NCBI RefSeq assembly: GCF_900176645.1
Contig: NZ_FXAN01000013.1
Coordinates: 62,001 to 126,000, forward strand
Origin: Burkholderia singularis
Lineage (GTDB): Bacteria > Pseudomonadota > Gammaproteobacteria > Burkholderiales > Burkholderiaceae
DNA: 64,000 nucleotides
Direction: 5' to 3'
This document shows, one piece after another, positions 6,481-37,833 of this stretch. Position 1 is the first letter of the stretch. Every line of letters begins with the position of its first letter. The notes beneath the pieces were generated by a model. That model saw only the letters and a list, made by a program, of their open reading frames with translations. It was not told where the DNA came from and made no database searches. A program made the position numbers and the translations under genes.

Positions 6481-6643
6481 ACGAACCCGATGCCGTGGAA
6501 TAGGCCCCCGCCTTGGCCGCTAGGCCGGCATCCTGAACCTGAGGTTCAGAATTGGTCGCAGTTAGCAGCACTTCGGGTACATCAGACAGAGTGACGCGCG
6601 CGCCCGTGCTACAAATTTCCGCAACCGTGCACATGGCATTGGT
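6481..6643 (-). ncRNA. ssrS: 6S RNA
   Basis: The minus-strand transcript directly after zapA has the pattern of 6S RNA. Its ends pair (GAACC..UGCC near 6640 with GGCA..GGUUC near 6485), and the 3' half carries the hallmark ACUGCGACC followed by a UGAACC/GGUUCA hairpin (about 6530-6560). 6S RNA mimics an open promoter and binds sigma70 RNA polymerase in stationary phase. A -10-like TATATT (complement of 6650-6655) sets the 5' end near 6643. Position beside zapA is the standard location in proteobacteria. The ends are estimates, good to perhaps 10 bases. Confidence 0.78.
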
Positions 6644-6777
6644 TCAAGGAATATATGACCTTGGCGAACCAGGCAGGGAAGCTGACTAAACGGTTCGAAT
6701 CACTTTTGGGTTCGGCTGCTTGAGCGGGATAGACCAAGCATGGCTCGAACCGGGTGAAACGAATGGACTGCTTTAAC

Positions 6778-7454: not shown

Positions 7455-7675
7455 CTGCTGCGTCCTCTAAAGACCCAGCATTTTAGCGCGGAATACCCGT
7501 TATTCCGATATCTGTAACGTTTCCAGACGTAACACCCGCGCTTCTCGCCGCGAACTATCGCAGACGCATCGACGCCGGCGCATGCTTTCGCGTGCCGCCT
7601 CATGCGCGATGCGCGCGCGTCGCGCGCCGCCGTGTTTCTTGACGCACGGCCGGCCGCGCTCCTAAACTGGCGCCG

Positions 7676-7916
7676 CCTCGGTGCTCGCGCGTTTCACGCG
7701 CGGTTAAACGGGAAGCAGGGTGCGAAGTCCGCCAGGATCGAGCCAACCTGCGCTGCCCCCGCAACGGTAAGCGAAGCGCATCGCATTCGATGCAAGCCGT
7801 CCTCTTCGCGCACTGGCGGCTGGTCGTGATCGGCCGGCCGCCGGTGCGCAGCAAGCCACTGCGCATCGCGCGGGAAGGCGAGGCGGCGATTTCGCAGCCC
7901 GGATACCGGCCGAGGC
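7676..7916 (+). promoter_or_regulatory. Cobalamin (B12) riboswitch
   Basis: The leader of btuB holds the conserved pieces of the cobalamin riboswitch in order. They are an early GGTGC..TTAAACGGGAA segment (about 7680-7713), the B12-box-like GCTGCCCCCGCAACGGTAAG (about 7751-7770), GCCACTGCGC (about 7855), GGGAAGGCGAGGCGG (about 7872-7886) and the closing AGCCCGGATACCGGCC (about 7896-7911). Binding of adenosylcobalamin should repress the uptake genes downstream. A perfect hairpin at 7948-7973 probably acts as the switching element. Confidence 0.92.
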
Positions 7917-7947
7917 GGGGAGGCGGCTTGCGGCCGTCTTCGTGACG

Positions 7948-7997: not shown

Positions 7998-9872
7998 ATG
8001 TCAACCTCATTCGTCCGCGCGGCGCTCGTCGCCTTGTCTGGATTGCCTTGCGCGTCGTTCGCGCAAACCGGCGCGGCGCCGTCGGCGCCTGCCGCCGGCG
8101 ACGCCGGCACGCAACTCGAGCCGATCGTCGTCACCGCGCAGCGCGGTCCGCAGAAGCTTGCCGATACCATTCCTCAAACCAGCCGCTTCGATGCGCAGGA
8201 CATCGCCGACAGCGGCGCGACCGATCTGCCCGGCCTGCTCGCGCTCGCGCCGGGCGCGCAGATCGTGCGCAACGGCGGCCCGGGGGCGAGCGCGAGCCTC
8301 TTTCTGCGCGGTGCGCAGCCGACGCAGTCGCTCGTGCTGATCGACGGCGTGCGAGTCGATTCGGCGAGCCTCGGGCAGGCGCAAATCGGCCGGATTCCGC
8401 TCGATCAGATCGAGCGGGTCGAGGTCGTGAACGGCAACGTGTCGTCGCTGTATGGGTCGGGCGCGATCGGCGGCGTCGTGCAGGTGTTCACGAAGCGCGG
8501 CGGCGATCATCCGCCGCGCTTCGATTTCTCCGCGGGCTACGGCAGCTATCACACGCAGACGCAGAACGCGGGCGTGTCGGGGCGGCTCGATCAGGACGGC
8601 AGCACGACGTTCAGCGTGTCGCTTGCGCGCGCGAAGACCGATGGTTTCTCGGCGATCGATCCCGCGAGCAAGCCGCAGGCGAATCCGAATGCGAACGGCA
8701 ACTTGAGCGAGAGCGTGTCGGCGTCGCTCAAGCATCGGTTCGGCGGCGGCTGGGATGCGGGCGTCACGTACTTCGACACCGCCGGCCGCAACAGCTACGA
8801 CAACGCATACGGCAAGCCCACCGATCTGAACGACCTGTACAGCCGGGTTCAGCAGATCTCGGCATTCGCGAACGGCAAAATCACCGGCTGGTGGACGACG
8901 CACGTCAACGTGTCGAGCGGCAAGGATCGCAACCAGTCGGCGTTGAACGGCGCGTACACCGATCACTTCAACACCGACAACCGTCAGTACACCTGGCAGA
9001 ACGATTTCACGCTCGCGCGCGGCCACACATTGCAGGCCGGCTACGAGCGGCTCGACCAGTCGTTCGATTCGAACAGCTACGCGGCGCCCACGCGCCACGT
9101 GAATTCCGGCTGGCTCGGCTATACCGGCCGCCTGGGCGCGAGCCAGTTCCAGGCGAATCTGCGGCGCGACCAGTATTCCGATTTCGGCGGCGCGAACAGC
9201 TACTATTTCGGTTATGGATTGGACGTCACCGAGCACTGGAAGGTGACGGCGAGCTACTCGGACGCGTTTCGCGCGCCCAGCTTCAACGATCTGTACTTTC
9301 CCAACTCGGGTAACCTGTCGATTCAGCCCGAGCGCAGCCACTCGGTCGACGCGGCCGTGCAGTACGCATCGGAGGCGATCGGCGTGGTGCGCGTCACCGC
9401 GTTTCAGACCCGCTATACGAACTTGATCGACTACCGGCCGGGCGCGAGCGGGTTTTTCTATGTCGCGCAGAACGTCGGCCGCGCCAAGGTGCAGGGCGTC
9501 GAAGGCTCGTGGCAGGGGCGGATCGGCAAGAACGACTTGCGGATTGCGGCGACGGTGCAGAATCCGGTCGACGAAATCGCGCATCAGGATCTGAACCGGC
9601 GCGCGCGGCGCTTCGCGTCGTTCGCCGCGCATCGCACGATGGGCGGCTGGCGGGTCGGCGGCGAGTGGCTGGTCAGCGGGCCGCGCACCGATTACGGCAG
9701 CCGGCTCGGCGGCTATGGAATCGTGAATGTGTCCGCGCGCTACGACATCACGAAATCGTGGTACGTGAGTGCGCGCATCGACAATCTGCTCGATAAGGAC
9801 TATGAGCTTGCGTATGCGTACAACACGCCGCGCCGCGGCGCCTATGTCACGCTCGGCTGGCAGCAGCGCTGA
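7998..9872 (+). CDS. btuB: TonB-dependent vitamin B12 outer-membrane receptor
   Basis: BtuB takes up cobalamins and cobinamides across the outer membrane using TonB energy. The 624-residue product has a signal peptide (to about residue 22), a TonB box (EPIVVTAQR, residues 41-49), a plug domain with LFLRGAQPTQSLVLIDGVR and RVEVVNGNVSSLYGSGAIGG, and a beta-barrel. The match to the BtuB subfamily and the B12 riboswitch in its leader agree. It heads a plus-strand run with the ABC transporter genes and cobT-cobS-cobC. No strong ribosome site precedes the ATG, which fits riboswitch control of translation. Confidence 0.94.
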   Translation: MSTSFVRAALVALSGLPCASFAQTGAAPSAPAAGDAGTQLEPIVVTAQRGPQKLADTIPQTSRFDAQDIADSGATDLPGLLALAPGAQIVRNGGPGASASLFLRGAQPTQSLVLIDGVRVDSASLGQAQIGRIPLDQIERVEVVNGNVSSLYGSGAIGGVVQVFTKRGGDHPPRFDFSAGYGSYHTQTQNAGVSGRLDQDGSTTFSVSLARAKTDGFSAIDPASKPQANPNANGNLSESVSASLKHRFGGGWDAGVTYFDTAGRNSYDNAYGKPTDLNDLYSRVQQISAFANGKITGWWTTHVNVSSGKDRNQSALNGAYTDHFNTDNRQYTWQNDFTLARGHTLQAGYERLDQSFDSNSYAAPTRHVNSGWLGYTGRLGASQFQANLRRDQYSDFGGANSYYFGYGLDVTEHWKVTASYSDAFRAPSFNDLYFPNSGNLSIQPERSHSVDAAVQYASEAIGVVRVTAFQTRYTNLIDYRPGASGFFYVAQNVGRAKVQGVEGSWQGRIGKNDLRIAATVQNPVDEIAHQDLNRRARRFASFAAHRTMGGWRVGGEWLVSGPRTDYGSRLGGYGIVNVSARYDITKSWYVSARIDNLLDKDYELAYAYNTPRRGAYVTLGWQQR

Positions 9873-9899
9873 CGTGGGCGGCACGCGGGAGGCGGCTTG

Positions 9900-10943
9900 A
9901 TGGCAGCGTTTGCCGGAAAGGGCGGCGTGCGCGGCGCCGGCATGCGCGCGGGACGCGCGGCGGCGATCTGGGCGGCGCTCGCGGCTGCCGCCGGCGCGGT
10001 GTTCGTCGCGTCGCTGACGCTCGGTAGCGTGCCGATGACGCCCGCCGATGCGCTCGCGGCCCTCGCGCATCGCACGGGCGAGGCACCGCTCGCGGCCGAC
10101 ATCGTCCGCACGCTGAGGCTGCCGCGCGCACTTGCGGGCTTCGGCTGCGGCGCGCTGCTTGCGCTCGCGGGCGCGCTGCTGCAAGTGCTGTTGCGCAATC
10201 CGCTTGCCGAACCGTATGTGCTCGGCGTGTCGGGCGGCGCGGCGGCGTTCGCGCTCGTCGCGATGATCGCGGGCGGCGCGTGGTGGCTCGTCGATGCGGC
10301 GTCGTTCGCGGGCGCGCTGGTGTCGATCGTGTTCGTGCTCGGGCTCGCGCGCCGGGAGCTGTGGCGCGGCGAGCCGCGCGATGCATCGCCGCGCCTGCTG
10401 CTCACGGGCGTCGTGATTTCCGCCGGATGGTTCGCGCTCATCACGCTGTTGCTGTCGATCGCGCCGCAGGAGCGGCTGCGCGGCATCCTGTTCTGGCTGT
10501 CGGGCGATCTGGGCGGCGCGGCGTCGCCGGGGTTCGCGCTCGCCGCGCTCGCGGTGGCCGCGCTTGCCGCGCTGCCGGCCGCGCCGCAACTGAACGTGCT
10601 GTTGCGCGGCGACGCGGCCGCCGCCGCGCTCGGCGTGCCGGTCGCGCGGCTGCGGCTGCGGGTTTATCTGATCGCTTCGCTCGCGGCCGCCGCGGCCGTC
10701 ACGACGGCGGGCACGATCGGCTTTGTCGGCTTGGTCGTGCCGCATGCGTTGCGGCTTGCGTTCGGCAACGATCAACGGATGCTGTTGCCCGCGGCGATGC
10801 TCGCGGGCGGCGCGGGCGTGATGGCCGCCGATCTGCTCGCGCGCACGGCGATGGCGCCCGCGCAGTTGCCGGTCGGCGTGATGACCGCGCTGATCGGCGT
10901 GCCGCTGTTCCTGTGGATGCTGTTGCGCAGGGCGGGGCGATGA
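9900..10943 (+). CDS. btuC: B12 ABC transporter permease (FecCD family)
   Basis: The inner-membrane permease of the cobalamin importer, 347 residues with about ten hydrophobic helices. Family landmarks are RLPRALAGFGCGALLALAGALLQ, the NPLAEPYVLGVSGGA segment that contacts the ATPase, and GLVVPHALR near the C-terminus. I start at ATG 9900 because GGGAGG at 9887-9892 is correctly spaced; a TTG codon lies just upstream. It lies 28 bp after btuB, and its stop overlaps the ATPase start (ATGA), so the two are translationally coupled. Specificity for B12 comes from the neighbours. Confidence 0.92.
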   Translation: MAAFAGKGGVRGAGMRAGRAAAIWAALAAAAGAVFVASLTLGSVPMTPADALAALAHRTGEAPLAADIVRTLRLPRALAGFGCGALLALAGALLQVLLRNPLAEPYVLGVSGGAAAFALVAMIAGGAWWLVDAASFAGALVSIVFVLGLARRELWRGEPRDASPRLLLTGVVISAGWFALITLLLSIAPQERLRGILFWLSGDLGGAASPGFALAALAVAALAALPAAPQLNVLLRGDAAAAALGVPVARLRLRVYLIASLAAAAAVTTAGTIGFVGLVVPHALRLAFGNDQRMLLPAAMLAGGAGVMAADLLARTAMAPAQLPVGVMTALIGVPLFLWMLLRRAGR

Positions 10944-11779
10944 CGAGCGCTCGGATCGACGCACGGCGGGCGCATGCTGCGCGCTATGGCGTGCAACGCC
11001 TCGTGCTGAAAGCGGGGGCGCGCACGCTGCTCGACGATTTCACGCATACGTTCCGTCCGGGCGAGCTTTGGTGTATCGCCGGGCCGAACGGCGCGGGCAA
11101 GACCACGCTGATGACGACGCTCGCGGGGCTCGCGGCGCCCGCGTCGGGCATTGTCGATGCCGACGGTGTGCCGCTTGCGCAATGGCGGCCGCAGGCGCTC
11201 GCGCAGCGGCGCGCGTGGATGGCGCAGACGCTGCACGACGCCTTTAGCGCCAGCGTGTTCGATACCGTGCTGCTTGGCCGCTTCCCGTATCTGACAGGAT
11301 GGGGATGGGAGCGCGCGGACGATCGCGAGGCGGCATGGGTGGCGCTCGAGCGGCTCGGACTTGCCGCGTTCGCGGCGCGCGACGTGCTGTCGCTGTCGGG
11401 CGGCGAGCGGCAGCGCGTCGCGCTGGCCGCCGCGCTGTGCCAGGATGCGCCGCTGCTGTTGCTCGACGAGCCGCTCGCGCATCTGGACTTGCATCATCAG
11501 ATCGATTGCCTCGCCGCGCTCGCCGATTGGCTGCGCGCCGGCGGGCGCACGGTCATCTTCTCGTGCCACGATCTGAATCTCGCGCGCCGCTTTGCCACTC
11601 ACGCGCTGCTGCTCGACGGCTGCGGCCACGCGCACGCAGGCCCGGCGCGAGACGTGCTGACGCCTGCGCTCGCGAGCCGCGCATTCGGCTATCCGCTCGT
11701 GCTGATCGAGCGCGACGGCCACGAGGCGCTGGTGCCCGCATGGCCCGATGCGCGCCACGGCGGGAGCCGCTCGCGTTGA
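10940..11779 (+). CDS. btuD: B12 ABC transporter ATP-binding protein
   Basis: The ATPase that drives cobalamin import through the permease just upstream. The 279 residues contain Walker A GPNGAGKTT, the Q-loop WMAQ, the signature LSGGERQRVALA, Walker B LLLLDEP with its catalytic glutamate, and the switch histidine in FSCHDLN. All needed motifs are intact. The start ATG at 10940 overlaps the permease stop by four bases. The frame is open far upstream, but that part only shadows the permease. The matching binding protein, BtuF, is encoded on the other strand at 15.2-16.2 kb. Confidence 0.93.
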   Translation: MTSARIDARRAHAARYGVQRLVLKAGARTLLDDFTHTFRPGELWCIAGPNGAGKTTLMTTLAGLAAPASGIVDADGVPLAQWRPQALAQRRAWMAQTLHDAFSASVFDTVLLGRFPYLTGWGWERADDREAAWVALERLGLAAFAARDVLSLSGGERQRVALAAALCQDAPLLLLDEPLAHLDLHHQIDCLAALADWLRAGGRTVIFSCHDLNLARRFATHALLLDGCGHAHAGPARDVLTPALASRAFGYPLVLIERDGHEALVPAWPDARHGGSRSR

Positions 11780-11846
11780 TTTCGATCCTCGGCCGGCGTT
11801 GCGTTGCGCGCCGCATTCCACCATTGAGATTCGACAGAGTAAACCG

Positions 11847-12899
11847 ATGAGTTCCTATTGCGTGCCGTATGTCGCCCCGCTCGACGATGCCGAACTGCGC
11901 GCGACGCTCGCGCGCGTCATCGACCAGAAAACCAAGCCGCCGGGCAGTCTTGGCCGGCTCGAGGCGCTCGCGTTGCAACTCGGCCTCGTTCAGCGCACTG
12001 TCGCGCCGCGCATCGTGCGCCCGGCGATGATCGTGTTCGCGGCCGATCACGGCATCGCCGCCGAAGGCGTGAGCCCGTATCCGCAGGCGGTGACCGCGCA
12101 GATGGTCGCGAATTTCGTCGCGGGCGGCGCGGCGATCAACGCGTTTTCGGGCGTCGCGGGGTGTGTGCTGGAGATCGTCGACGCAGGCGTCGCGTCGCCG
12201 TTGGACGACGCGCTGCCGCTCGTGCGCGCGGCGATCGCGCGCGGCACGCGCAACTTCGCGCGCGAGCGCGCGATGACGCGCGACGAGGTCCGCGCGGCGC
12301 TCGAGGCGGGCGCCGCGCGCGTCGCGCATCATGCGGCGCTCGGCACCAATATGATCGGCTTCGGCGAGATGGGGATCGCGAACACGTCGGCGGCCGCGTG
12401 CCTGATGAGCCGCATGCTGAACGTGCCGCTCGACGCGTGTGTCGGCCGCGGCACGGGGCTCGACGACGCCGGGCTCGCGCACAAGCGCGCGGTGCTCGAA
12501 CGCGCGCTCGCGCGGCATCCGGACGCGCGAGCGCCGCTCGACGTGCTCGCGACGTTCGGCGGCTTCGAAATCGCGATGATGACCGGTGCATTCGTCGAGG
12601 CCGCGCGTGCGCGCATGACGATCCTCGTCGACGGTTTCATCGCCACGTCCGCGCTGCTGATCGCCGATGCGCTCGCGCCCGCGGTGCGCGAATACTGCGT
12701 GTTCTCGCATGTATCGAACGAAGCGGGGCATCGGCGGATGCTCGAGCATTTCGGCGCGCATGCGTTGCTGTCGCTCGATCTGCGCGTCGGCGAAGGCACG
12801 GGCGCCGCGCTCGCGCTGCCGCTGGTGCGCGCGGCGGCCGCGTTCGTCAGTGAGATGGCAAGTTTCGAAGCGGCCGGCGTCGCGAACCGCGATGCGTGA
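11847..12899 (+). CDS. cobT: Nicotinate-nucleotide:dimethylbenzimidazole phosphoribosyltransferase
   Basis: CobT makes alpha-ribazole phosphate from dimethylbenzimidazole and nicotinate mononucleotide, the lower-ligand branch of B12 synthesis. The 350-residue product has the signature KTKPPGSLGRLE near the start (about residues 31-42), FAADHGIAAEG, GEMGIANTSAAAC and the C-terminal DLRVGEGTGAALALPL with its glutamate. I start at ATG 11847 rather than upstream codons because the family begins there. It lies 67 bp after btuD and 6 bp before cobS, so it belongs to the same transcription unit. Confidence 0.96.
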   Translation: MSSYCVPYVAPLDDAELRATLARVIDQKTKPPGSLGRLEALALQLGLVQRTVAPRIVRPAMIVFAADHGIAAEGVSPYPQAVTAQMVANFVAGGAAINAFSGVAGCVLEIVDAGVASPLDDALPLVRAAIARGTRNFARERAMTRDEVRAALEAGAARVAHHAALGTNMIGFGEMGIANTSAAACLMSRMLNVPLDACVGRGTGLDDAGLAHKRAVLERALARHPDARAPLDVLATFGGFEIAMMTGAFVEAARARMTILVDGFIATSALLIADALAPAVREYCVFSHVSNEAGHRRMLEHFGAHALLSLDLRVGEGTGAALALPLVRAAAAFVSEMASFEAAGVANRDA

Positions 12900-12905
12900 C
12901 GCGCG

Positions 12906-13664
12906 ATGAATCCGCTTGCCGAATTTCGCTACTTCGCCGTCGCGCTCGGGTATTTCACGCGCGTGCCGGTGCCGCGTTCGATCAGCGGTGCGAGCGTCGA
13001 GCTTGCGCACGCGGCGCGCTATTTTCCGCTCGTCGGCGTGTGCGTGGGCGCACTCGCGGCGCTCGTGCATCTGGCCGCGTCGCGCGTGTGGCCGCCGGGC
13101 ATCGCGGCACTGCTGTCGATCGCGGCGACGCTTGCGGCAACGGGCGCGCTGCACGAGGACGGGCTGGCCGATAGTTGCGACGCGTTCGGCGGCGGCTACA
13201 CGTGCGACGACGTATTGCGGATCATGCGCGATTCGCGGATCGGCACGTTCGGCGCGGCGGCGCTCGTCGTCGCACTCGCGTTGAAGTGGCAGGCGCTCGC
13301 CGCGATGCCGCCCGCGCGCGCGGCCTGGACGATGATCGCCGCGCACGCGGGCAGCCGCGCGCTCGCCGCGAGCCTGCTCGTGACGCTCGACTACGTGCGC
13401 GCCGAAGGCCGTGCGCGGCCCGTCGCGCAGCGCATGCGCGCGCGCGCGTTCGCATTCGCGGCGGCGTGCGGCCTGCCGTGGCTGTTTTGGCCGGATTGGC
13501 GCGCCGGCGCACTGGCGCTTGCCGTGACGTTCGTGCTGCGTGCCGGCATCGCGCGTTATTTGGTCAAGCGCATCGGCGGCTATACCGGCGATTGTCTCGG
13601 CTTCGCGCAGCAGGTGTTCGAGCTGGCGATCTATCTGACGGTGCTCGGATGGATCTCGTTCTGA
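12906..13664 (+). CDS. cobS: Adenosylcobinamide-GDP ribazoletransferase (cobalamin synthase)
   Basis: CobS joins GDP-cobinamide and alpha-ribazole to complete the nucleotide loop; it is an integral inner-membrane enzyme. The 252 residues begin with the typical FRYFAVALGYFTRVPVP, and contain GALHEDGLADSCDAFGGG with the acidic metal-binding residues, and several membrane helices. The length is normal. It starts 6 bp after cobT and its end overlaps cobC by 16 bases. Its substrate GDP-cobinamide depends on CobU, which is broken in this sequence. Confidence 0.95.
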   Translation: MNPLAEFRYFAVALGYFTRVPVPRSISGASVELAHAARYFPLVGVCVGALAALVHLAASRVWPPGIAALLSIAATLAATGALHEDGLADSCDAFGGGYTCDDVLRIMRDSRIGTFGAAALVVALALKWQALAAMPPARAAWTMIAAHAGSRALAASLLVTLDYVRAEGRARPVAQRMRARAFAFAAACGLPWLFWPDWRAGALALAVTFVLRAGIARYLVKRIGGYTGDCLGFAQQVFELAIYLTVLGWISF

Positions 13665-14260
13665 TCCGCCATCCGGCCGTGGCCGTCGAACCGCATGTTT
13701 GCTACGGCGGCAGCGACGTGCCGCTGGCGGCCGATGCGGCGTCGGGCGCGGCCGATATCCTGCGGCGGCTGCGCTTGCTCGGCGTGGGCGGTGCACGCAT
13801 GGTCTGGACGAGCCCGCTCATGCGGTGCGCGGATGTCGCGCACGCGCTTGCGCGCGACGTGCGCGCGCCGGTCGAAGTCGACCTGCGCTTGCGCGAAATC
13901 GACTTCGGCGCATGGGAAATGCAGAGCTGGGACGCGATCGGACGCGACGCGATCGACCGCTGGAGCGCCGATCCGATGGGCGCGCGCGAGCATGGCGGCG
14001 AAAGCGCCGCGCAGTTCGCCGCGCGCGTGCGGCCGATGCTTGCGGCGCTGTCGGCAGTTTCGGCGTTTGCTTCGCAGAGGCCGACGAACTGGGCGGTGAC
14101 GCACGCGGGGGTGATACGCGTGCTTGCGGCGCTGGCGCTGGATGTGCCGCTCGATACGCTGCTCGCGCGGCCGATCGCGATGGGCGGCATCGTGTGGCTG
14201 CGCCGCGATGAAGGCGGCGAGGGCGCACGCGGCTGGCGGCTCGCGCATTGGGACGTATGA
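13649..14260 (+). CDS. cobC: Alpha-ribazole phosphatase-like histidine phosphatase
   Basis: A 203-residue member of the phosphoglycerate-mutase/histidine phosphatase superfamily. The active-site histidine lies in LIRHPAV (residues 5-11) and the second catalytic histidine in VTHAGVIR; the conserved LREIDFGAWE follows the family. The usual RHG is RHP here, which is also seen in some family members. In this operon the natural role is dephosphorylation of alpha-ribazole phosphate or adenosylcobalamin phosphate, the last step of nucleotide-loop assembly. The ATG at 13649 lies within the end of cobS (16-base overlap). Confidence 0.82.
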   Translation: MDLVLIRHPAVAVEPHVCYGGSDVPLAADAASGAADILRRLRLLGVGGARMVWTSPLMRCADVAHALARDVRAPVEVDLRLREIDFGAWEMQSWDAIGRDAIDRWSADPMGAREHGGESAAQFAARVRPMLAALSAVSAFASQRPTNWAVTHAGVIRVLAALALDVPLDTLLARPIAMGGIVWLRRDEGGEGARGWRLAHWDV

Positions 14261-15247: not shown

Positions 15248-16174
15248 TCACGGCTTCGGCCGTCGCGAGCGCGCGATATCGAGATCCCGGCACAGCTGTT
15301 CGGCGCCTTGCGCGAGACGCGGAGTGGGCCGCGTCAGCAGATCGCCGTCGATCGCGAACAGATTGCCCCGCGCGAGCGCAGTGAGCGCGGGCCATGTGCG
15401 CCAGCGGGCGAAATCGGGCAGCGCGTCGCGCGTCGAGGTCGCGCCGGGCGCGGTCGTCAGGATCGCTTCGGGGTTGGCCGCGAGCACCGCTTCGTCGGTG
15501 ACGGCGGGCGCGATCGGCTGTAGTTGCGCGAATACGTTGCGCCCGCCGCACAGCGCGATCACGTCGCTGGCGATGTGCGCGCCGCTCAACGTCATCAGCG
15601 GCCGATCCCAGATCTGGAAGAACACGGCAACGGGCGGCTTGTCCGCGTAGCGCGCACGTAGCTGGCCGATCTGCCGCCGATAGTCGGCGGCGGCGGCCGA
15701 CGCCGTGTCGCGCGTATCGAGGAGCGTGCCGAGTTTTTCGAGCGACGTCGCGACATCGTCGAGATGATGCGGCTCGCTGAAGAAGAGCGGAATGCCGAGC
15801 GCGCGCAGCCGCTCGGTCTCGCGTTCGGCGTTGCCGTGCCGCCAAACGACGACCAGATCGGGCTTGAGCGCCGCGATGCGTTCGAGGTCGAGCGCTTGAT
15901 TCGAGCCGACGCGCGGCAGCGCTTTCGCGGCGGGCGGATAGTCGCTGTACGACACCGCGCCGACGAGCGCCGCGCCGCCGCCGGCTGCGTAGATCAGCTC
16001 GGTCACGTGCGGCGCAAGGCTCACGACGCGCCGCGCAGGCGCGGCGAGCGTGACGGCGCGGCCGGCGTCGTCGGTGACGGTGACGCTCGCGTGCGCGGCG
16101 GCGATGGCGCCGGCGCACGCGCACGCAGCGGCGATACGCAGCGCGGCGGTGCGGCCGCGCATAGGCATGGTCAT
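15248..16174 (-). CDS. btuF: Periplasmic cobalamin-binding protein of the B12 importer
   Basis: A 308-residue substrate-binding protein of the BtuF type, with an export signal (residues about 7-30, ending near AHA) and two lobes of the periplasmic-binding fold. Landmarks are RVVSLAPHVTELIYAAGGG, GSNQALDLERIAALKPDLVVVW and, late, GGRNVFAQL. It should deliver cobalamin or cobinamide to BtuC/BtuD, encoded on the opposite strand. I take ATG 16172-16174 as the start because it overlaps the stop of cobD (ATGA, 16171-16174); two more in-frame ATGs follow within 14 bases. It is the last clear cobalamin gene of the minus-strand run. Confidence 0.92.
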   Translation of the reverse strand: MTMPMRGRTAALRIAAACACAGAIAAAHASVTVTDDAGRAVTLAAPARRVVSLAPHVTELIYAAGGGAALVGAVSYSDYPPAAKALPRVGSNQALDLERIAALKPDLVVVWRHGNAERETERLRALGIPLFFSEPHHLDDVATSLEKLGTLLDTRDTASAAAADYRRQIGQLRARYADKPPVAVFFQIWDRPLMTLSGAHIASDVIALCGGRNVFAQLQPIAPAVTDEAVLAANPEAILTTAPGATSTRDALPDFARWRTWPALTALARGNLFAIDGDLLTRPTPRLAQGAEQLCRDLDIARSRRPKP

Positions 16175-17205
16175 GTCGAAGTTCCTGCTGTCAACGTGGG
16201 CGCGCAGGCATCCAGTGCCGCTTCGAGCCGCTGCCATTCGGCTTCGTGCGCGGGCAGCCCGATTCTGATGCTGGGCGCGTGCGCGAAGAAGCGCGTCCAG
16301 ATGCCGAGCGCGGCGAGCGCTTGGTGCAGCGCGCGTGCGCGCGGATCGTCGGTCCAACTGAACAGCGGCGTCGCGCGGACCATGAAGCCGTGCGTGCGCA
16401 GCAGCGACGCGAGCCGTGCGCCGTCGGCCGCGAGCCGCTCGCGCGCGGCATGCTGCCACGCGTGGTCGGAGAATGCCGCGAGCACGGCGTGACGGGCGGG
16501 GCCGCCGACTGTCCACGCGCCGAGCGCGTCGTGCAACCTGTGCAGCAGCGTGGGCGCGGCAAGCACGAAGCCCGCGCGCACTCCCGCGAGCCCGAAGAAT
16601 TTGCCGACCGAGCGCAGCACGACGAGGCCGTGTGTATCGGTGTCGGCGGCAAGCGACGCGGGCGTGCCGGCATCGGCGTCCGCGAATGCTTCATCGACGA
16701 TCAGCGCGCCGCCGCGCGCGGCGAGTTGCGCGTGCCAGCGCAGCAGCCGCACGCGTTCGATGCGCTCGGCGCTCGGATTGTTCGGATTCGCGACGATCGC
16801 ATACGTGAGCGATTCGGGCAGCGTGTCACTGCGGCAATCGAGCGGTGCGAGCGCGTGGCCGTGGCGCTCGAATGCCGGCGCGTATTCGCTGTATGTGAGC
16901 GGCGCGACGCCCGCGACACCGCGCGCGAACAGCGCGGGCAGCGCGCGGATCGCGGCCTGACTGCCGGCGACGGGCAGCACGTGCGCGGCGCTCGGCGCGC
17001 CATAGTAGCGCGCGGCGTGCCCGGCAAGCACGCCGTCGTCCTCGGGCAGCCGGTGCCATGCGTCGGCGGGCACGGGCGGCACGGGATAGCCGAGCGGATT
17101 GATGCCGGTCGACAAGTCGAGCCACGCGTCGCGCGCGATGCCGTAGCGCTGCGCGGCCTCGTGCAGATTGCCGCCGTGAACGATCGCGGGCCGGGCGTCA
17201 GACAT
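16171..17205 (-). CDS. cobD: L-threonine-O-3-phosphate decarboxylase
   Basis: A 344-residue PLP enzyme of the aminotransferase class I/II fold. It should decarboxylate threonine phosphate to aminopropanol phosphate, the linker that CbiB joins to cobyric acid (CobD of Salmonella, called CobC in other schemes). Landmarks are HGGNLHEAAQRYG at the start, LDLSTGINPLGYP, VANPNNPS, VDEAF and the PLP-lysine motif LRSVGKFFGLAGVRAG. Its start overlaps the end of cbiB by 8 bases and its stop overlaps the btuF start, so cobU-cbiB-cobD-btuF form a tightly coupled operon. Confidence 0.93.
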   Translation of the reverse strand: MSDARPAIVHGGNLHEAAQRYGIARDAWLDLSTGINPLGYPVPPVPADAWHRLPEDDGVLAGHAARYYGAPSAAHVLPVAGSQAAIRALPALFARGVAGVAPLTYSEYAPAFERHGHALAPLDCRSDTLPESLTYAIVANPNNPSAERIERVRLLRWHAQLAARGGALIVDEAFADADAGTPASLAADTDTHGLVVLRSVGKFFGLAGVRAGFVLAAPTLLHRLHDALGAWTVGGPARHAVLAAFSDHAWQHAARERLAADGARLASLLRTHGFMVRATPLFSWTDDPRARALHQALAALGIWTRFFAHAPSIRIGLPAHEAEWQRLEAALDACAPTLTAGTST

Positions 17206-18136
17206 GGCTGAACGTGTTCGACAGCGCCGCGCCGATAATCAGCAACGCGAGCCAAAGCGCCATCGTGCGCGCGACGAGCGACAGCGCGGCGGCAACGTGC
17301 GCGGGCGCGGCGGGCGCGCCCGCGCCGAGCAGCGGGCGGGTTTCGAGCTGGCCGTGATAGACGGCGGGCCCGCCAATCACGACGTTCAGGCTGCCGGCGC
17401 CGGCTGCCATCACGGGGCCAGCGTTCGGGCTGTCCCAGAGCCGCGCTTGGCGGCGCCAGCAGCGCCACGCGTTCGCGGTGTCGCCGAGCAGCGCGTAGCT
17501 CGCTGCGGTCAGGCGCGCGGGCAGCCAGTTGAGCGCGTCGTCGATGCGCGCCGCGGCCCAGCCGAAACGGGCGAAGCGCGGCGTCCGGTAGCCCCACATC
17601 GCATCGAGCGTGTTCGCGAGCCGGAAGAGGAGCGCGCCGGGGCCGCCCGCGACGGCGAACCAGAACAGCGCGCCGAAGATCGCGTCGTTGCCGTTCTCCA
17701 GCGCCGATTCGACCGCCGCGCGCGACAGCGCCGCTTCGTCGGCGGCGCTGGTATCGCGCGATACGATGCGCGCGGTCAACGCTCGCGCGGCGGCGAGGTC
17801 GCGCCGCGCGAGCGCGGCGGCGATCGGCGCGACGTGCTCGGCAAGGCTGCGCGCGCCGAGCGCGAACCACAGCAGCGCGACATGCAGCGCGGCGGCAAGC
17901 GGCCACGGCAAGATCGCGATGAGCGCGGCGGCGAGCGCGACGGGCGGCGCGACGGCCGCGAGCCACGCGGCGGCGCCGGCGAGCCGGCCGCGCCGCCCGG
18001 TGTTCAGTGCGCGTTCGATGCGCACGGCGAGCCGGCCGAAGCCGACGAGCGGATGCGCGGCGCGCGGCTCGCCGACGAGCCGGTCGACGATGCAGCCGGC
18101 CAGCGCGAACAGCGCGACGGCTATGGGCGACAACAT
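17198..18136 (-). CDS. cbiB: Adenosylcobinamide-phosphate synthase
   Basis: CbiB links aminopropanol phosphate to adenosylcobyric acid to make adenosylcobinamide phosphate; it is an inner-membrane enzyme. The 312 residues have a hydrophobic start, GEPRAAHPLVGFGRL, RDTSAADEAALSRAAVESALENGNDAIFGALFW, and WGYRTPRFARFGWAAARIDD, all family landmarks. Two starts are possible: ATG 18134-18136, which overlaps the cobU stop as TGATG, and ATG six bases earlier (18142). I prefer the first. It overlaps cobD downstream. Confidence 0.93.
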   Translation of the reverse strand: MLSPIAVALFALAGCIVDRLVGEPRAAHPLVGFGRLAVRIERALNTGRRGRLAGAAAWLAAVAPPVALAAALIAILPWPLAAALHVALLWFALGARSLAEHVAPIAAALARRDLAAARALTARIVSRDTSAADEAALSRAAVESALENGNDAIFGALFWFAVAGGPGALLFRLANTLDAMWGYRTPRFARFGWAAARIDDALNWLPARLTAASYALLGDTANAWRCWRRQARLWDSPNAGPVMAAGAGSLNVVIGGPAVYHGQLETRPLLGAGAPAAPAHVAAALSLVARTMALWLALLIIGAALSNTFSHV

Positions 18137-18673
18137 CAGCATTGCGCACCGCCCGCCGGTTTGACGCGAACCGGCAGCCCGGCGACGAGCAGCGTCACGC
18201 GCGTCGCGAGCGCGGCGATGCGCTGGTTGACGCGGCCGAGCGTATCGACGAAGCGCCGCGTTTGCGCGCCGAGCGGCACGACGCCCAGACCGATTTCGTT
18301 GCTGACGACGATCACCTGCGCACGCGTCGCGCGCAGCGCCGTTTCGAGTTCGGCGATGCTTGCGTCGGCGAGCGCGTCGTCGACGCCCGGGCCGTCGGCG
18401 GGGCACAGCAAATTCGTGAGCCAAAGCGTCAGGCAATCGACGAGCACGCACGCATCCGGCGCGTCGAGCCGCGCGATCGCCAGCGCGAGTTCGACAGGCG
18501 CTTCGACGAGCGCCCAGTCGGCCGGCCGGCGCGCGCGATGATGGGCGACGCGCGCGGCGAACTCGTCGTCGCCGATGCGGGCGGTCGCGATATAGGTGAC
18601 GGGCCGGCCGCTTTCGGCGGCGAGCCGTTCGGCATGCGCCGCCGAGAACGAAGGTGAGGTCGAGCGGAGTCAT
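18136..18673 (-). pseudogene. cobU: Broken adenosylcobinamide kinase/guanylyltransferase (P-loop deleted)
   Basis: CobU (CobP) phosphorylates adenosylcobinamide and transfers GMP to it. The start MTPLDLTFVLGGA (ATG at 18671-18673) is normal, but the Walker A motif that should follow (GARSGKS) is missing. The text jumps to the codons for HAERLAAESGRPVTYIATA in another frame, which then continue correctly through VLVDCLTLWLTN, VSNEIGLG and VNQRIA to the stop at 18136. Comparing with the family, about 20 bases (a length of 2 modulo 3) are gone at about 18634-18640. The first ATG in the C-terminal frame is only at 18447. The gene should be inactive unless this is an assembly error. Confidence 0.88.
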
Positions 18674-19202
18674 CGCGTGATTGTAGCGGGCCGCGCGATA
18701 ATGCGGCTTGCGTGATGTGGCGTGCACGAAGGCGGACGGGTTCGAGGGCGCTTTGCGCGGCGCACCGAAGGGGTGTTTCGCGTGCGGTTGCAGCGCGCGT
18801 TTTGATCGAGGCGGGGGCAGACGTCATCGTCGAGCGATGTTGTGACGCAGGCGTCGATCGTTTCGATTCGCGCTTGGTTGGCGCTTGGTTTATGTTCGAA
18901 CCGTGCTCGAAGTCGTGCTTAACCTGGGCCCGATCCGCGCCTAACCGGTGGGCGGATCGCGCCTGGGGCACACTTGGGCCGCTTGGGGCCGCACGCGGGT
19001 TGCTCCCGGACCGCCACCGGATCACGCTCGGACCGCACGCAATCCGCGCCCGGGTACCGCGCATCGAACCGGCATGCCGCTCGGCGGTTCCACGCTCGCG
19101 GCCCGGTTCACCGCGCCGTTTTACCGACCCGTTTCTCAACCCGTTTCGCAACCCGTTTCACCAACCGATTTTGCCGATTCCCATTTCGTCCGCACCGATA
19201 CG
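18674..19202. other. Gene-free stretch between divergent cobU and cobQ
   Basis: About 530 bp with no convincing coding region. It should hold the promoters of the minus-strand cobU operon and of cobQ. The part just before cobQ contains a short tandem repeat (19127-19162). I looked for a second B12 riboswitch and did not see its conserved boxes. Confidence 0.5.
19127..19162. repeat. Three tandem copies of a 12-bp unit
   Basis: Three consecutive copies of ACCCGTTTCnnn (19127-19138, 19139-19150, 19151-19162), followed by a decayed fourth (AACCGATTTT). It lies 40 bp upstream of the cobQ start, where copy-number change could alter expression or the leader length. Confidence 0.8.
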
Positions 19203-20726
19203 ATGACCGCTCACGCTTTTGCTTCGCTTCCACGCCCGCGCGGCACGCTGATGATCCAAGGTACGACGTCCGACGCGGGCAAGAGCACGCTGGTCGCGGG
19301 CCTGTGCCGGCTCGCGCGCCGCGCGGGCGTGCGCGTCGCGCCGTTCAAGCCGCAAAATATGGCGCTCAACAGCGCGGTCACCGCCGACGGCGGCGAGATC
19401 GGCCGCGCGCAGGCATTGCAGGCGCTCGCGGCCGGCATCGACGCGCATACCGACCTGAACCCGGTGCTGCTCAAGCCCACCGGCGATCGCGGCGCGCAGG
19501 TCATCATCCACGGCAAGGCGCGCATGAATCTCGACGCGCGCGCGTATCACGGCTACAAGCCCGTCGCGATGCAAGCCGTGCTCGAATCGTACCGCCGGTT
19601 GCAACGCGGCTATGACGCGTTGATCGTCGAGGGCGCGGGCAGTCCCGCCGAAATCAATCTGCGCGAGGGCGACATCGCGAACATGGGGTTTGCCGAAGCC
19701 GTCGATTGTCCGGTCGTGCTGGTCGCGGACATCGATCGCGGCGGCGTGTTCGCGCATCTCGTCGGCACGCTCGCGTGCTTGTCGGCGAGCGAGCGTGCGC
19801 GCGTGCGCGGCTTCGTGATCAACCGGTTTCGCGGCGATCCCGCGCTGCTCGAACCGGGGCTGCGCTGGCTCGAGCAGCACACGGGCAAGCCCGTGTTCGG
19901 CGTGCTGCCGTATCTGCACGGGCTCATGCTCGACGCGGAGGACATGCTGCCGAAGGCCGCGCGCTCGGCCGCGGCGGGCGGCGACGCCGGCGTGCTGCGC
20001 GTCGTCGTGCCCGCGCTGCCGCGAATCAGCAACCATACCGATTTCGATCCGCTGCGCGCGCATCCGCGCATCGACTTCACGTATTGGAAGAGCGGCCCGG
20101 TGCCGGCCGCCGACCTGCTGATCCTGCCCGGCTCGAAGCACGTGCTCGCCGATCTCGCGTGGCTGCGCGAGGCGGGGTGGGAGGCCGTCGTCAAGCGCCA
20201 TCTGCGCTACGGCGGCAAGCTGATCGGCATCTGCGGCGGCATGCAGATGCTCGGCGCGACGCTCGACGATCCGCACGGCGTCGAGGGCGCGGCGGGTGCG
20301 GCAAGCGCGGGCTTCGGCTTGCTCGATTACGCGACGACGCTCACGCGCGAGAAAACGCTCGTCAACGTGACGGGGCGGCTTGCGGGTCGGCTTGCGTTAG
20401 GCGGCGCGCCCGCGCGCGTCGCGGGCTACGAGATCCACATGGGGCAGACCCGCGGGCCGGCACTCGCGTCGCCCGCGCTCATGCTTGCCGGGCCCGACGG
20501 CGAGCGGCCGGACGGCGCGGTGTCGGCGGACGGACAGATTCTCGCGACCTACGTGCACGGCCTTTTCGACACGCCCGACGCGTGCGCGGCGCTGACCGAA
20601 TGGGCGGGGCTGGATGGCGCGGCGCCGGTCGATTATCCGGCGCTGCGCGAGGCATCGCTGGAGCGGCTGGCGGATACGCTCGCCGAGCATTTGGATATCG
20701 AGCGGGTGTTCGGCGCGTTTGCGTGA
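19203..20726 (+). CDS. cobQ: Cobyric acid synthase
   Basis: CobQ (CbiP) amidates four side chains of adenosylcobyrinic acid diamide using glutamine and ATP. The 507-residue product has the N-terminal nucleotide-binding motif [12 protein letters not shown] (residues 18-29), [21 protein letters not shown], and a C-terminal glutamine amidotransferase domain with the nucleophile in [10 protein letters not shown] and the histidine in YVHGLFD. The frame is open back to 18948, but the family start is ATG 19203. It stands alone on the plus strand, divergent from the cobU operon. Confidence 0.96.
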
Positions 20727-37016: not shown

Positions 37017-37736
37017 AGGGGGCTGTAAAAGGACTGCGAGGAAAACGTCGGGAAGCAGCGATTCTAGCAGGGTGGCGGCCGGTGTATCGCGGGCTGCGCG
37101 CGGCGTGGCGGCGGCGGAGGAGGGCGCGCGGGCCGACTTTGGCGCGCAGTCTCGGCTTGGTGGCCTGGCAGGGCGGTTGGCGGGAGCCGGGAGCGGATAC
37201 CGGCGCGCCGCATCCGGCGGCCGGCGTGCGAGCCCGTTGCGGATACGGGCGATGCCATGTCCTGGCGTTCTGACGAGATCGAATGGCATATCGGCTGCGA
37301 TCGGATTCTAATCGGAAGACGATCCGAAACACGCCCGTGTTCGGCGTTTGGTTCAGGTGCCGGCGTTCAATGCCCGGGCCGGTGCCGATTTCATTCAGAG
37401 GCGACGCATAAGCGACGGGGCGCGGTAGATCGCAATCGATCGATAGAAAGGGTTGAAAGAGACGCAATAGTCGGTTGGAACGAACCGCCCGGAGCGAACC
37501 GCCATTGAGCAGCGCAGGGCTGACCGCACACCGCCATGCGCTTACGAAACGTAATGAAGCGCGTAATAAAGCGGGGCGACGTCGGCGCCGGACAGCCGAT
37601 GTGTGATGGAAGCGGAAAAGCGGGACGAATGCTGGAAGGCAGCGCCGGTTCGGCGGTACCCGCACGGCTGCGCCGGCTCTCCGGCACCGCGCGGGCCGAG
37701 CGGCGGACCGCCGTAGGCACGGCGAAAACGGCAGAC
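37017..37736. other. Long intergenic region upstream of metG
   Basis: About 720 bp with no convincing gene on either strand; all frames are arginine-rich and lack ribosome sites. It should hold the metG promoter on the minus strand. The far end meets the terminator of the OmpA-like lipoprotein gene, which is read toward metG. Confidence 0.45.
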
Positions 37737-37765
37737 AAAAAAAACCGGGGCGAATGCGGCCCCGG
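37737..37765 (-). terminator. Intrinsic terminator of the OmpA-like gene
   Basis: A 7-bp GC stem (37745-37751 with 37759-37765) followed on the minus strand by eight T residues (complement of 37737-37744). It lies about 170 bp past the lipoprotein stop codon, so the transcript has an unusually long 3' leader or carries a small RNA. Confidence 0.8.
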
Positions 37766-37833
37766 AGCAACAACGACAAGAGGAGAATGGTGACGCGCCG
37801 GCAGCACCAGCCGCGTACCGTAAAGACAGACTG

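What the first reader, a model, noticed from the sequence alone, without database searches (positions are those of the whole stretch)
18136..18673. cobU broken by a ~20-bp deletion that removes its P-loop
Seen: the gene starts normally (ATG 18673, then FVLGGA), lacks the expected GARSGKS motif, and continues in another frame with all later CobU landmarks. Known: CobU carries both the kinase and guanylyltransferase steps, and the Walker A motif is needed. Inference: the strain cannot make GDP-cobinamide, so de novo B12 synthesis and cobinamide salvage would stop, while uptake of complete cobalamin would still work. The rest of the operon is intact, so the lesion looks recent.
Basis: partly seen in the sequence, partly recalled or inferred. 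Interest (0 to 1): 0.8.

Follow-up and report, generated by a model that had tools for sequence, protein, structure and literature searches.

The report
B12 gene broken by small deletion
In this one Burkholderia genome a 20-base deletion has knocked out a single gene near the end of vitamin B12 synthesis; it is an ordinary, probably recent gene loss, interesting mainly because a DNA hairpin at the deleted spot suggests how it happened.

Summary
cobU (18673 down to 18136, minus strand) lacks exactly 20 bases relative to its closest fetched relative, Burkholderia sp. TSV86. The loss removes the Walker A P-loop and shifts the frame; the rest of CobU follows in another frame. No second CobU was found in the assembly. 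The P-loop is intact in 79 of 80 named relatives; the other is an N gap. The genome matches the published assembly of B. singularis LMG 28154T, a cystic-fibrosis isolate (135 contigs, 5.54 Mb). New here: the shifted frame runs in frame into cobD, a predicted 491-aa ORF (177 + 314); and in TSV86 the lost bases form an 8-bp-stem hairpin with a 4-bp direct repeat at the ends, as in slippage deletions. Of 87 aligned hairpins on this contig 86 are kept, so wholesale assembly collapse is unlikely, but no reads were seen. The remnant evolves like its neighbours (dN/dS 0.205), so the lesion looks recent. MetE, a class I NrdA and B12 uptake genes are present, so the loss is probably tolerated. Ordinary pseudogenisation, low to moderate interest.

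The parts
18136..18673 (-). cobU remnant: original start codon, 20-base deletion, then the rest of CobU in another frame
18636..18640 (-). deletion junction (placement uncertain within the 4-bp repeat)
17198..18673 (-). open frame from the cobU start running in frame into cobD: 491 aa = 177 aa before CobD's own Met (63 Arg in residues 14-177) + 314 aa CobD
17198..18142 (-). cobD/cbiB (adenosylcobinamide-phosphate synthase), own ATG at 18142 overlapping the former cobU stop
16171..17205 (-). cobC-type threonine-phosphate decarboxylase
   Evidence: TIGR01140, 336 bits, cut-off 290.55
15248..16516 (-). ORF with a periplasmic binding domain at residues 164-392 (BtuF-like; true start probably further in)
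18948..20726 (+). cobQ (cobyric acid synthase), divergent from cobU; the match begins near residue 100 of this ORF
7662..7928 (+). cobalamin riboswitch
7998..9872 (+). BtuB-like TonB-dependent receptor (best match TIGR01779, 408.7 bits, below its cut-off 599.7)
9897..10943 (+). FecCD-family permease (BtuC-like)
10280..11779 (+). ORF holding an ABC ATPase domain (BtuD-like) at residues 251-400
11748..12899 (+). cobT (dimethylbenzimidazole phosphoribosyltransferase)
12906..13664 (+). cobS (cobalamin-5-phosphate synthase)
13175..14260 (+). ORF with a histidine phosphatase domain (residues 161-354), likely the late phosphatase

Best explanation
cobU is a recent pseudogene. A 20-base deletion between two 4-bp direct repeats, at the foot of an 8-bp-stem hairpin formed by the Walker A codons, removed the P-loop and shifted the frame (slipped-strand replication is inferred). 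The strain therefore should not make AdoCbi-GDP by CobU: de novo B12 synthesis stops after AdoCbi-phosphate and cobinamide salvage stops too, while imported complete cobalamin stays usable. Ribosomes that start at the old cobU start now read an Arg-rich shifted stretch and enter cobD in frame, so CobD is made as an N-extended form, or from its own ATG, or both. Loss is tolerated because a B12-independent methionine synthase (MetE) and a class I ribonucleotide reductase alpha subunit are present. Shown: the deletion in the assembly, the frames, the gene content. Inferred: deletion mechanism, enzyme loss, phenotype.
For: Exact 20-base gap against TSV86. One CobU match in the genome. P-loop readable in 79 of 80 named loci, the other an N gap. 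CobU matched from profile position 1 in 62 of 64 other genus genomes. Hairpin of stem 8, loop 6 at the lost bases; the 71-base stretch folds as DNA with z -2.0, 6 of 200 shuffles folding as well; 4-bp microhomology. Of 87 aligned sister hairpins, 86 are kept here and only the cobU one is deleted; in reverse 79 of 80 are kept, 0 deleted, 1 at an alignment edge. Remnant dN/dS 0.205 against the sister; cobD 0.109, cobC 0.368, cobQ 0.132, cobS 0.188. dN to G021 is 0.097 for the remnant and 0.095 for the sister's copy. In-frame join to cobD. B12-related gene content. Polymerases slip in vitro on a hairpin with short direct repeats (PMC4134008, abstract seen).
Against: Draft short-read assembly (about 70x, SPAdes; PMC5592201 passages); no reads could be checked. 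The same hairpin could make a polymerase slip during library preparation. B. multivorans WS-FJ9 has an assembly gap over this same stretch, so the spot may be awkward to sequence. The remnant shows no decay, which fits an artefact as well as a recent loss. An unrelated guanylyltransferase replacing CobU was not searched for.
Confidence: 0.8

Rival explanations
1. Sequencing or assembly artefact: the hairpin caused template slippage or collapse and the strain's cobU is whole.
For: Hairpin with direct repeat at the exact spot; draft assembly; N gap over the same stretch in B. multivorans WS-FJ9; remnant shows no sign of relaxed selection.
Against: 86 of 87 aligned hairpins of this kind are kept on this contig. 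About 70x coverage makes it unlikely that a minority slippage product would win (inference). Of 196 indels against the sister 83 are single bases and one is of 20 bases.
Confidence: 0.15
2. Mixed population: the deletion is a variant that rose in the stock or in the patient lineage and the assembler chose it.
For: Slippage sites of this kind are known to be mutable (general knowledge); serial isolates of the same patient exist (PMC5592201 section 5).
Against: No second cobU in the assembly, although assemblers often discard the minor path.
Confidence: 0.04
3. CobU is still made, by internal initiation or recoding, and works without its P-loop.
For: The remnant frame is open and conserved.
Against: No ATG, GTG or TTG in the remnant frame between the stop at 18672 and GTG 18447, which would give only 103 aa; only rarer start codons (ATC, CTG) lie between. 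The P-loop is present in 79 of 80 relatives.
Confidence: 0.01

Closest known systems
CobU (also called CobP, name recalled), adenosylcobinamide kinase / adenosylcobinamide-phosphate guanylyltransferase (PF02283; PDB 1c9k/1cbu, 7tm8)
   Same: The remnant matches profile positions 14-167 and, over residues 2-160, the solved chains 7tm8_A and 1c9k_A.
   Different: Lacks the Walker A P-loop and a continuous frame.
Near-complete B12 pathways that do not work, e.g. Mycobacterium tuberculosis (PMC12713380, start of abstract in a listing only)
   Same: Nearly all pathway genes kept, synthesis thought lost.
   Different: Different organism; here no phenotype has been measured and the loss is seen in one assembly.
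Hairpin-plus-direct-repeat slippage deletions (PMC4134008, abstract)
   Same: Short direct repeats flanking a hairpin that is lost.
   Different: That work is in vitro with archaeal polymerases; here the event is only inferred from its product.

Membership tests
Functional CobU (PF02283 / PRK05800) | Continuous open frame over the whole domain from a start codon | tested here: not met
   Frame shifts at 18640-18636
Functional CobU (PF02283 / PRK05800) | Walker A P-loop near the N terminus | tested here: not met
   Absent here, present in 79 of 80 named relatives
Functional CobU (PF02283 / PRK05800) | Downstream CobU domain | tested here: met
   Profile 14-167 of 168, E 1.9e-50
Functional CobU (PF02283 / PRK05800) | Kinase and guanylyltransferase activity | not testable with these tools
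   Needs a bench assay
Recent pseudogene by microdeletion | Disabling change relative to intact orthologues at the same place | tested here: met
   20-base deletion against TSV86 inside one long collinear alignment
Recent pseudogene by microdeletion | No excess of amino-acid changes in the remnant (recent) | tested here: met
   dN/dS 0.205, within the 0.109-0.368 of four neighbouring cob genes. An artefact would look the same.
Recent pseudogene by microdeletion | Present in the organism, not only in the assembly | not testable with these tools
   Reads and other strains of the species were not available
Hairpin/direct-repeat slippage deletion | Direct repeats at the ends and inverted repeat between them in the intact relative | tested here: met
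   4-bp microhomology, 8-bp stem, 6-base loop

The most novel reading that the evidence does not exclude
The Walker A codons of cobU in GC-rich Burkholderia are themselves a palindromic deletion hot spot, so that B12 synthesis is repeatedly and locally lost by the same kind of P-loop excision, with the frame landing in cobD so that downstream translation survives. A stem of 8 or more occurs at the cobU Walker A in 20 of 75 relatives against 63 of 3000 random 42-base pieces of the window. Against it: no second case was seen among 64 other genus genomes or 80 named loci, apart from one N gap.
Probability: 0.06. Interest if true: 0.5.

Novelty: new member of a known kind. Interest (0 to 1): 0.27.

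Why it matters
If real, the type strain of B. singularis would be unable to complete B12 although it keeps much of the pathway: it would depend on imported cobalamin for ethanolamine use and for its other B12-dependent enzymes. It would also be a clean example of a P-loop lost by hairpin slippage. Annotation that sees only a long CobD there, or assumes a complete pathway, would be misled.

Tried and rejected
Second CobU elsewhere: not found; one match in the whole assembly.

Systematic hairpin collapse in the assembly: not supported; 86 of 87 aligned hairpins kept.

Recurrent P-loop loss in the genus: none found; of 64 other genomes 62 match from profile position 1, one is an N gap and one, 82% complete, has no match. 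In the wider family 311 of 398 genomes match, this one included. The rows of that call were capped, and some genomes have weak or double matches (for example G115, G127, G339 with two matches; G102, G391, G393 weak); these were not followed up.

Crude gene calling on the contig to count frame breaks was of limited use: it includes wrong-frame ORFs and did not call the sister's cobU. One search listed 10 of 133 sister ORFs and 8 of 96 own ORFs covered under 80% by the other genome, start and frame errors included. One search listed five sister ORFs split over two frames here (two only at their 5' ends, two by 1-base insertions outside the window, one by a 7-base deletion at window 40780; indels) and four own ORFs split in the sister. 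The contig-wide dN/dS baseline (80 ORFs, median 0.232, upper quartile 0.845) is contaminated by wrong frames, so only the named neighbouring genes serve as a yardstick.

Plasmid collection search with the region: no match. One search failed by a script fault and was repeated.

Literature: the listings (7 of 7 papers shown; 12 of 25; 3 of 3; 12 of 96), titles and starts of abstracts only, showed no report of cobU loss in Burkholderia; only openly licensed PubMed Central papers are held. The main text of PMC5592201 has no word beginning 'cobalamin', 'vitamin', 'cob' or 'auxotroph'. Its supplements were not seen, so whether cobU is among its 57 pseudogenes is unknown.

Full report
What is there. 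On the minus strand, ATG 18673 starts a frame that reads MTPLDLTFVLGGA and then loses similarity to CobU. The frame from 18639 to the stop at 18138-18136 reads 167 aa that match Pfam CobU positions 14-167 of 168 (E 1.9e-50) and the NCBIfam equivalog for the bifunctional kinase/guanylyltransferase. That frame is closed upstream by a stop at 18672 and has no ATG, GTG or TTG before GTG 18447, only rarer starts such as ATC and CTG. The GTG would give 103 aa.

Which organism. The assembly has 135 contigs and 5,538,112 bases, and its contig C70 aligns at about 92-97% identity with TSV86 in pieces over 400 bases. The type strain of B. singularis, LMG 28154T, was published as 135 contigs and 5.54 Mb, with ANI 94.40 to TSV86 (PMC5592201, passages). 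I take the window to be that strain; this is an inference from those numbers. The paper gives it as one of three serial respiratory isolates of one Canadian cystic-fibrosis patient, collected in 2003 (section 5), and counts 57 potential pseudogenes (passage). Its supplements were not seen, so whether cobU is among them is unknown.

The deletion. Against TSV86 there is a single gap of exactly 20 bases with near identity on both sides. The junction can be placed anywhere in 18640-18636 because 4 bases are repeated. Intact copies exist in relatives. The best 80 of 106 confirmed loci of a capped collection scan were kept. The P-loop is readable in 75 of these 80 in the first test, and in 4 of the remaining 5 when their own match positions and a slightly wider pattern were used. 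The last, B. multivorans WS-FJ9, has a run of N there. Of 65 genus genomes searched including this one, 64 match CobU: 62 from profile position 1, this one from 13, G025 (contig of the same length as the WS-FJ9 one) from 43; G057, 82% complete, has no match.

Mechanism of the lesion. In TSV86 the lost stretch is a perfect 8-bp inverted repeat with a 6-base loop. The 71 bases around it fold as DNA with z -2.0, 6 of 200 shuffles folding at least as well. The ends carry the 4-bp direct repeat. Hairpin plus short direct repeats is a template on which polymerases slip in vitro (PMC4134008, abstract). The hairpin arises from the Walker A codons: 20 of 75 relatives measured have a stem of 8 or more, against 63 of 3000 random 42-base pieces of the window. 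The relatives are not independent of one another.

Artefact or real. The same geometry could mislead library amplification or assembly, so I looked for other losses. Of 117 such hairpins in 180 kb of the sister, 87 align; 86 are kept and 1, cobU, is deleted. In the reverse direction 80 of 81 align; 79 are kept, none is deleted and 1 lies at an alignment edge. Among 196 indels over 126,028 summed aligned bases, 83 are single bases and one is of 20 bases, the cobU deletion; a few are larger, up to 48. This argues against wholesale collapse but cannot replace reads. The N gap at the same place in WS-FJ9 is a warning in the other direction. I put the chance that the deletion is real in the strain near 0.8.

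Age. The remnant, read in its own frame, differs from the sister by 16 synonymous and 9 non-synonymous changes (dN/dS 0.205). cobD gives 0.109, cobC 0.368, cobQ 0.132 and cobS 0.188. Distances to G021, a more distant genus member taken as outgroup without a tree, are dN 0.097 and dS 0.382 for the remnant, and dN 0.095 and dS 0.316 for the sister's copy. There is no excess of amino-acid change since the break, so it is recent, or an artefact.

The frame after the break. The ORF from ATG 18673 is 491 aa: 177 aa before CobD's own Met and 314 aa of CobD, with 63 Arg in residues 14-177. It matches TIGR00380 (CbiB) over residues 191-477, 179 bits against a cut-off of 165.9; four related models match below their cut-offs. 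In TSV86 the cobD start overlaps the cobU stop, and the same seven-base overlap was printed for 28 of the fetched loci, the commonest form. This suggests coupled translation (inference). Here ribosomes starting at 18673 would not stop there. With a deletion that is not a multiple of three, one of the two possible shifted frames is cobD's, so the join needs no special cause.

Consequence. CobU phosphorylates adenosylcobinamide and guanylylates adenosylcobinamide-phosphate, and CobU, CobS and CobT serve cobinamide salvage in another bacterium (PMC9426561, passages). That the P-loop serves both reactions is recalled, not from a call. Much of the pathway is present: cobQ, cobD, cobC, cobT, cobS and a phosphatase domain in the window; cobN, cobW, a cobB-type gene, adenosyltransferase and a CbiG_C gene on contig C104; seven tetrapyrrole methylase matches, four of them on C104, not told apart further. 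Not every ring gene was checked. Genes for import and use of whole cobalamin are present: riboswitch, BtuB-like receptor, permease, ATPase, binding protein, adenosyltransferase. The receptor scores below its NCBIfam cut-off (408.7 against 599.7). B12 users: the B12-binding part of MetH (1557 bits, cut-off 1497; its N-terminal part was not looked for), an NrdJ-type reductase (TIGR02504, 579.9 bits, cut-off 399.95; its best model, a 'ribonucleotide reductase-like protein', is below cut-off) and EutB. Methylmalonyl-CoA mutase was not found. B12-independent MetE and a class I NrdA-type alpha subunit are present. So loss of synthesis is probably silent except where ethanolamine ammonia-lyase is needed or B12-dependent enzymes are limiting. 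This is inference.

Verdict. A real feature of the assembly, most likely a recent pseudogene made by hairpin slippage: an ordinary kind of event in an informative place. The phenotype, the presence of the deletion in the strain, and its spread in the species remain untested.

Noticed in passing
window 40780 (sister ORF L151:1317-2621): A 7-base deletion relative to TSV86 splits a 434-aa sister ORF over two frames; the sister ORF has no Pfam match at E 1e-5, so it may not be a gene.
   Followed up: partly
L097:4258-4310: B. multivorans WS-FJ9 has an assembly gap (run of N) over the cobU P-loop region, the same place as the deletion here.
   Followed up: yes
window 18983: A 10-base insertion relative to TSV86 with 7 bases of repeat at its ends, between cobU and the cobQ match.
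   Followed up: no
window 5805: A 1-base deletion relative to TSV86 near the 5' end of a conserved ORF; it may lie before the true start.
   Followed up: no
window 37736-37818 (-) and 6501-6682 (-): Rfam matches to the Burkholderia sRNA ncS16 and to 6S RNA.
   Followed up: no
G115, G127, G339: Family members with two CobU matches and weaker scores, possibly split or broken cobU genes.
   Followed up: no
G000:C70 near 54706 (outside the window): A 1-base insertion relative to TSV86 splits an 1113-aa sister ORF that has no Pfam match at E 1e-5.
   Followed up: partly
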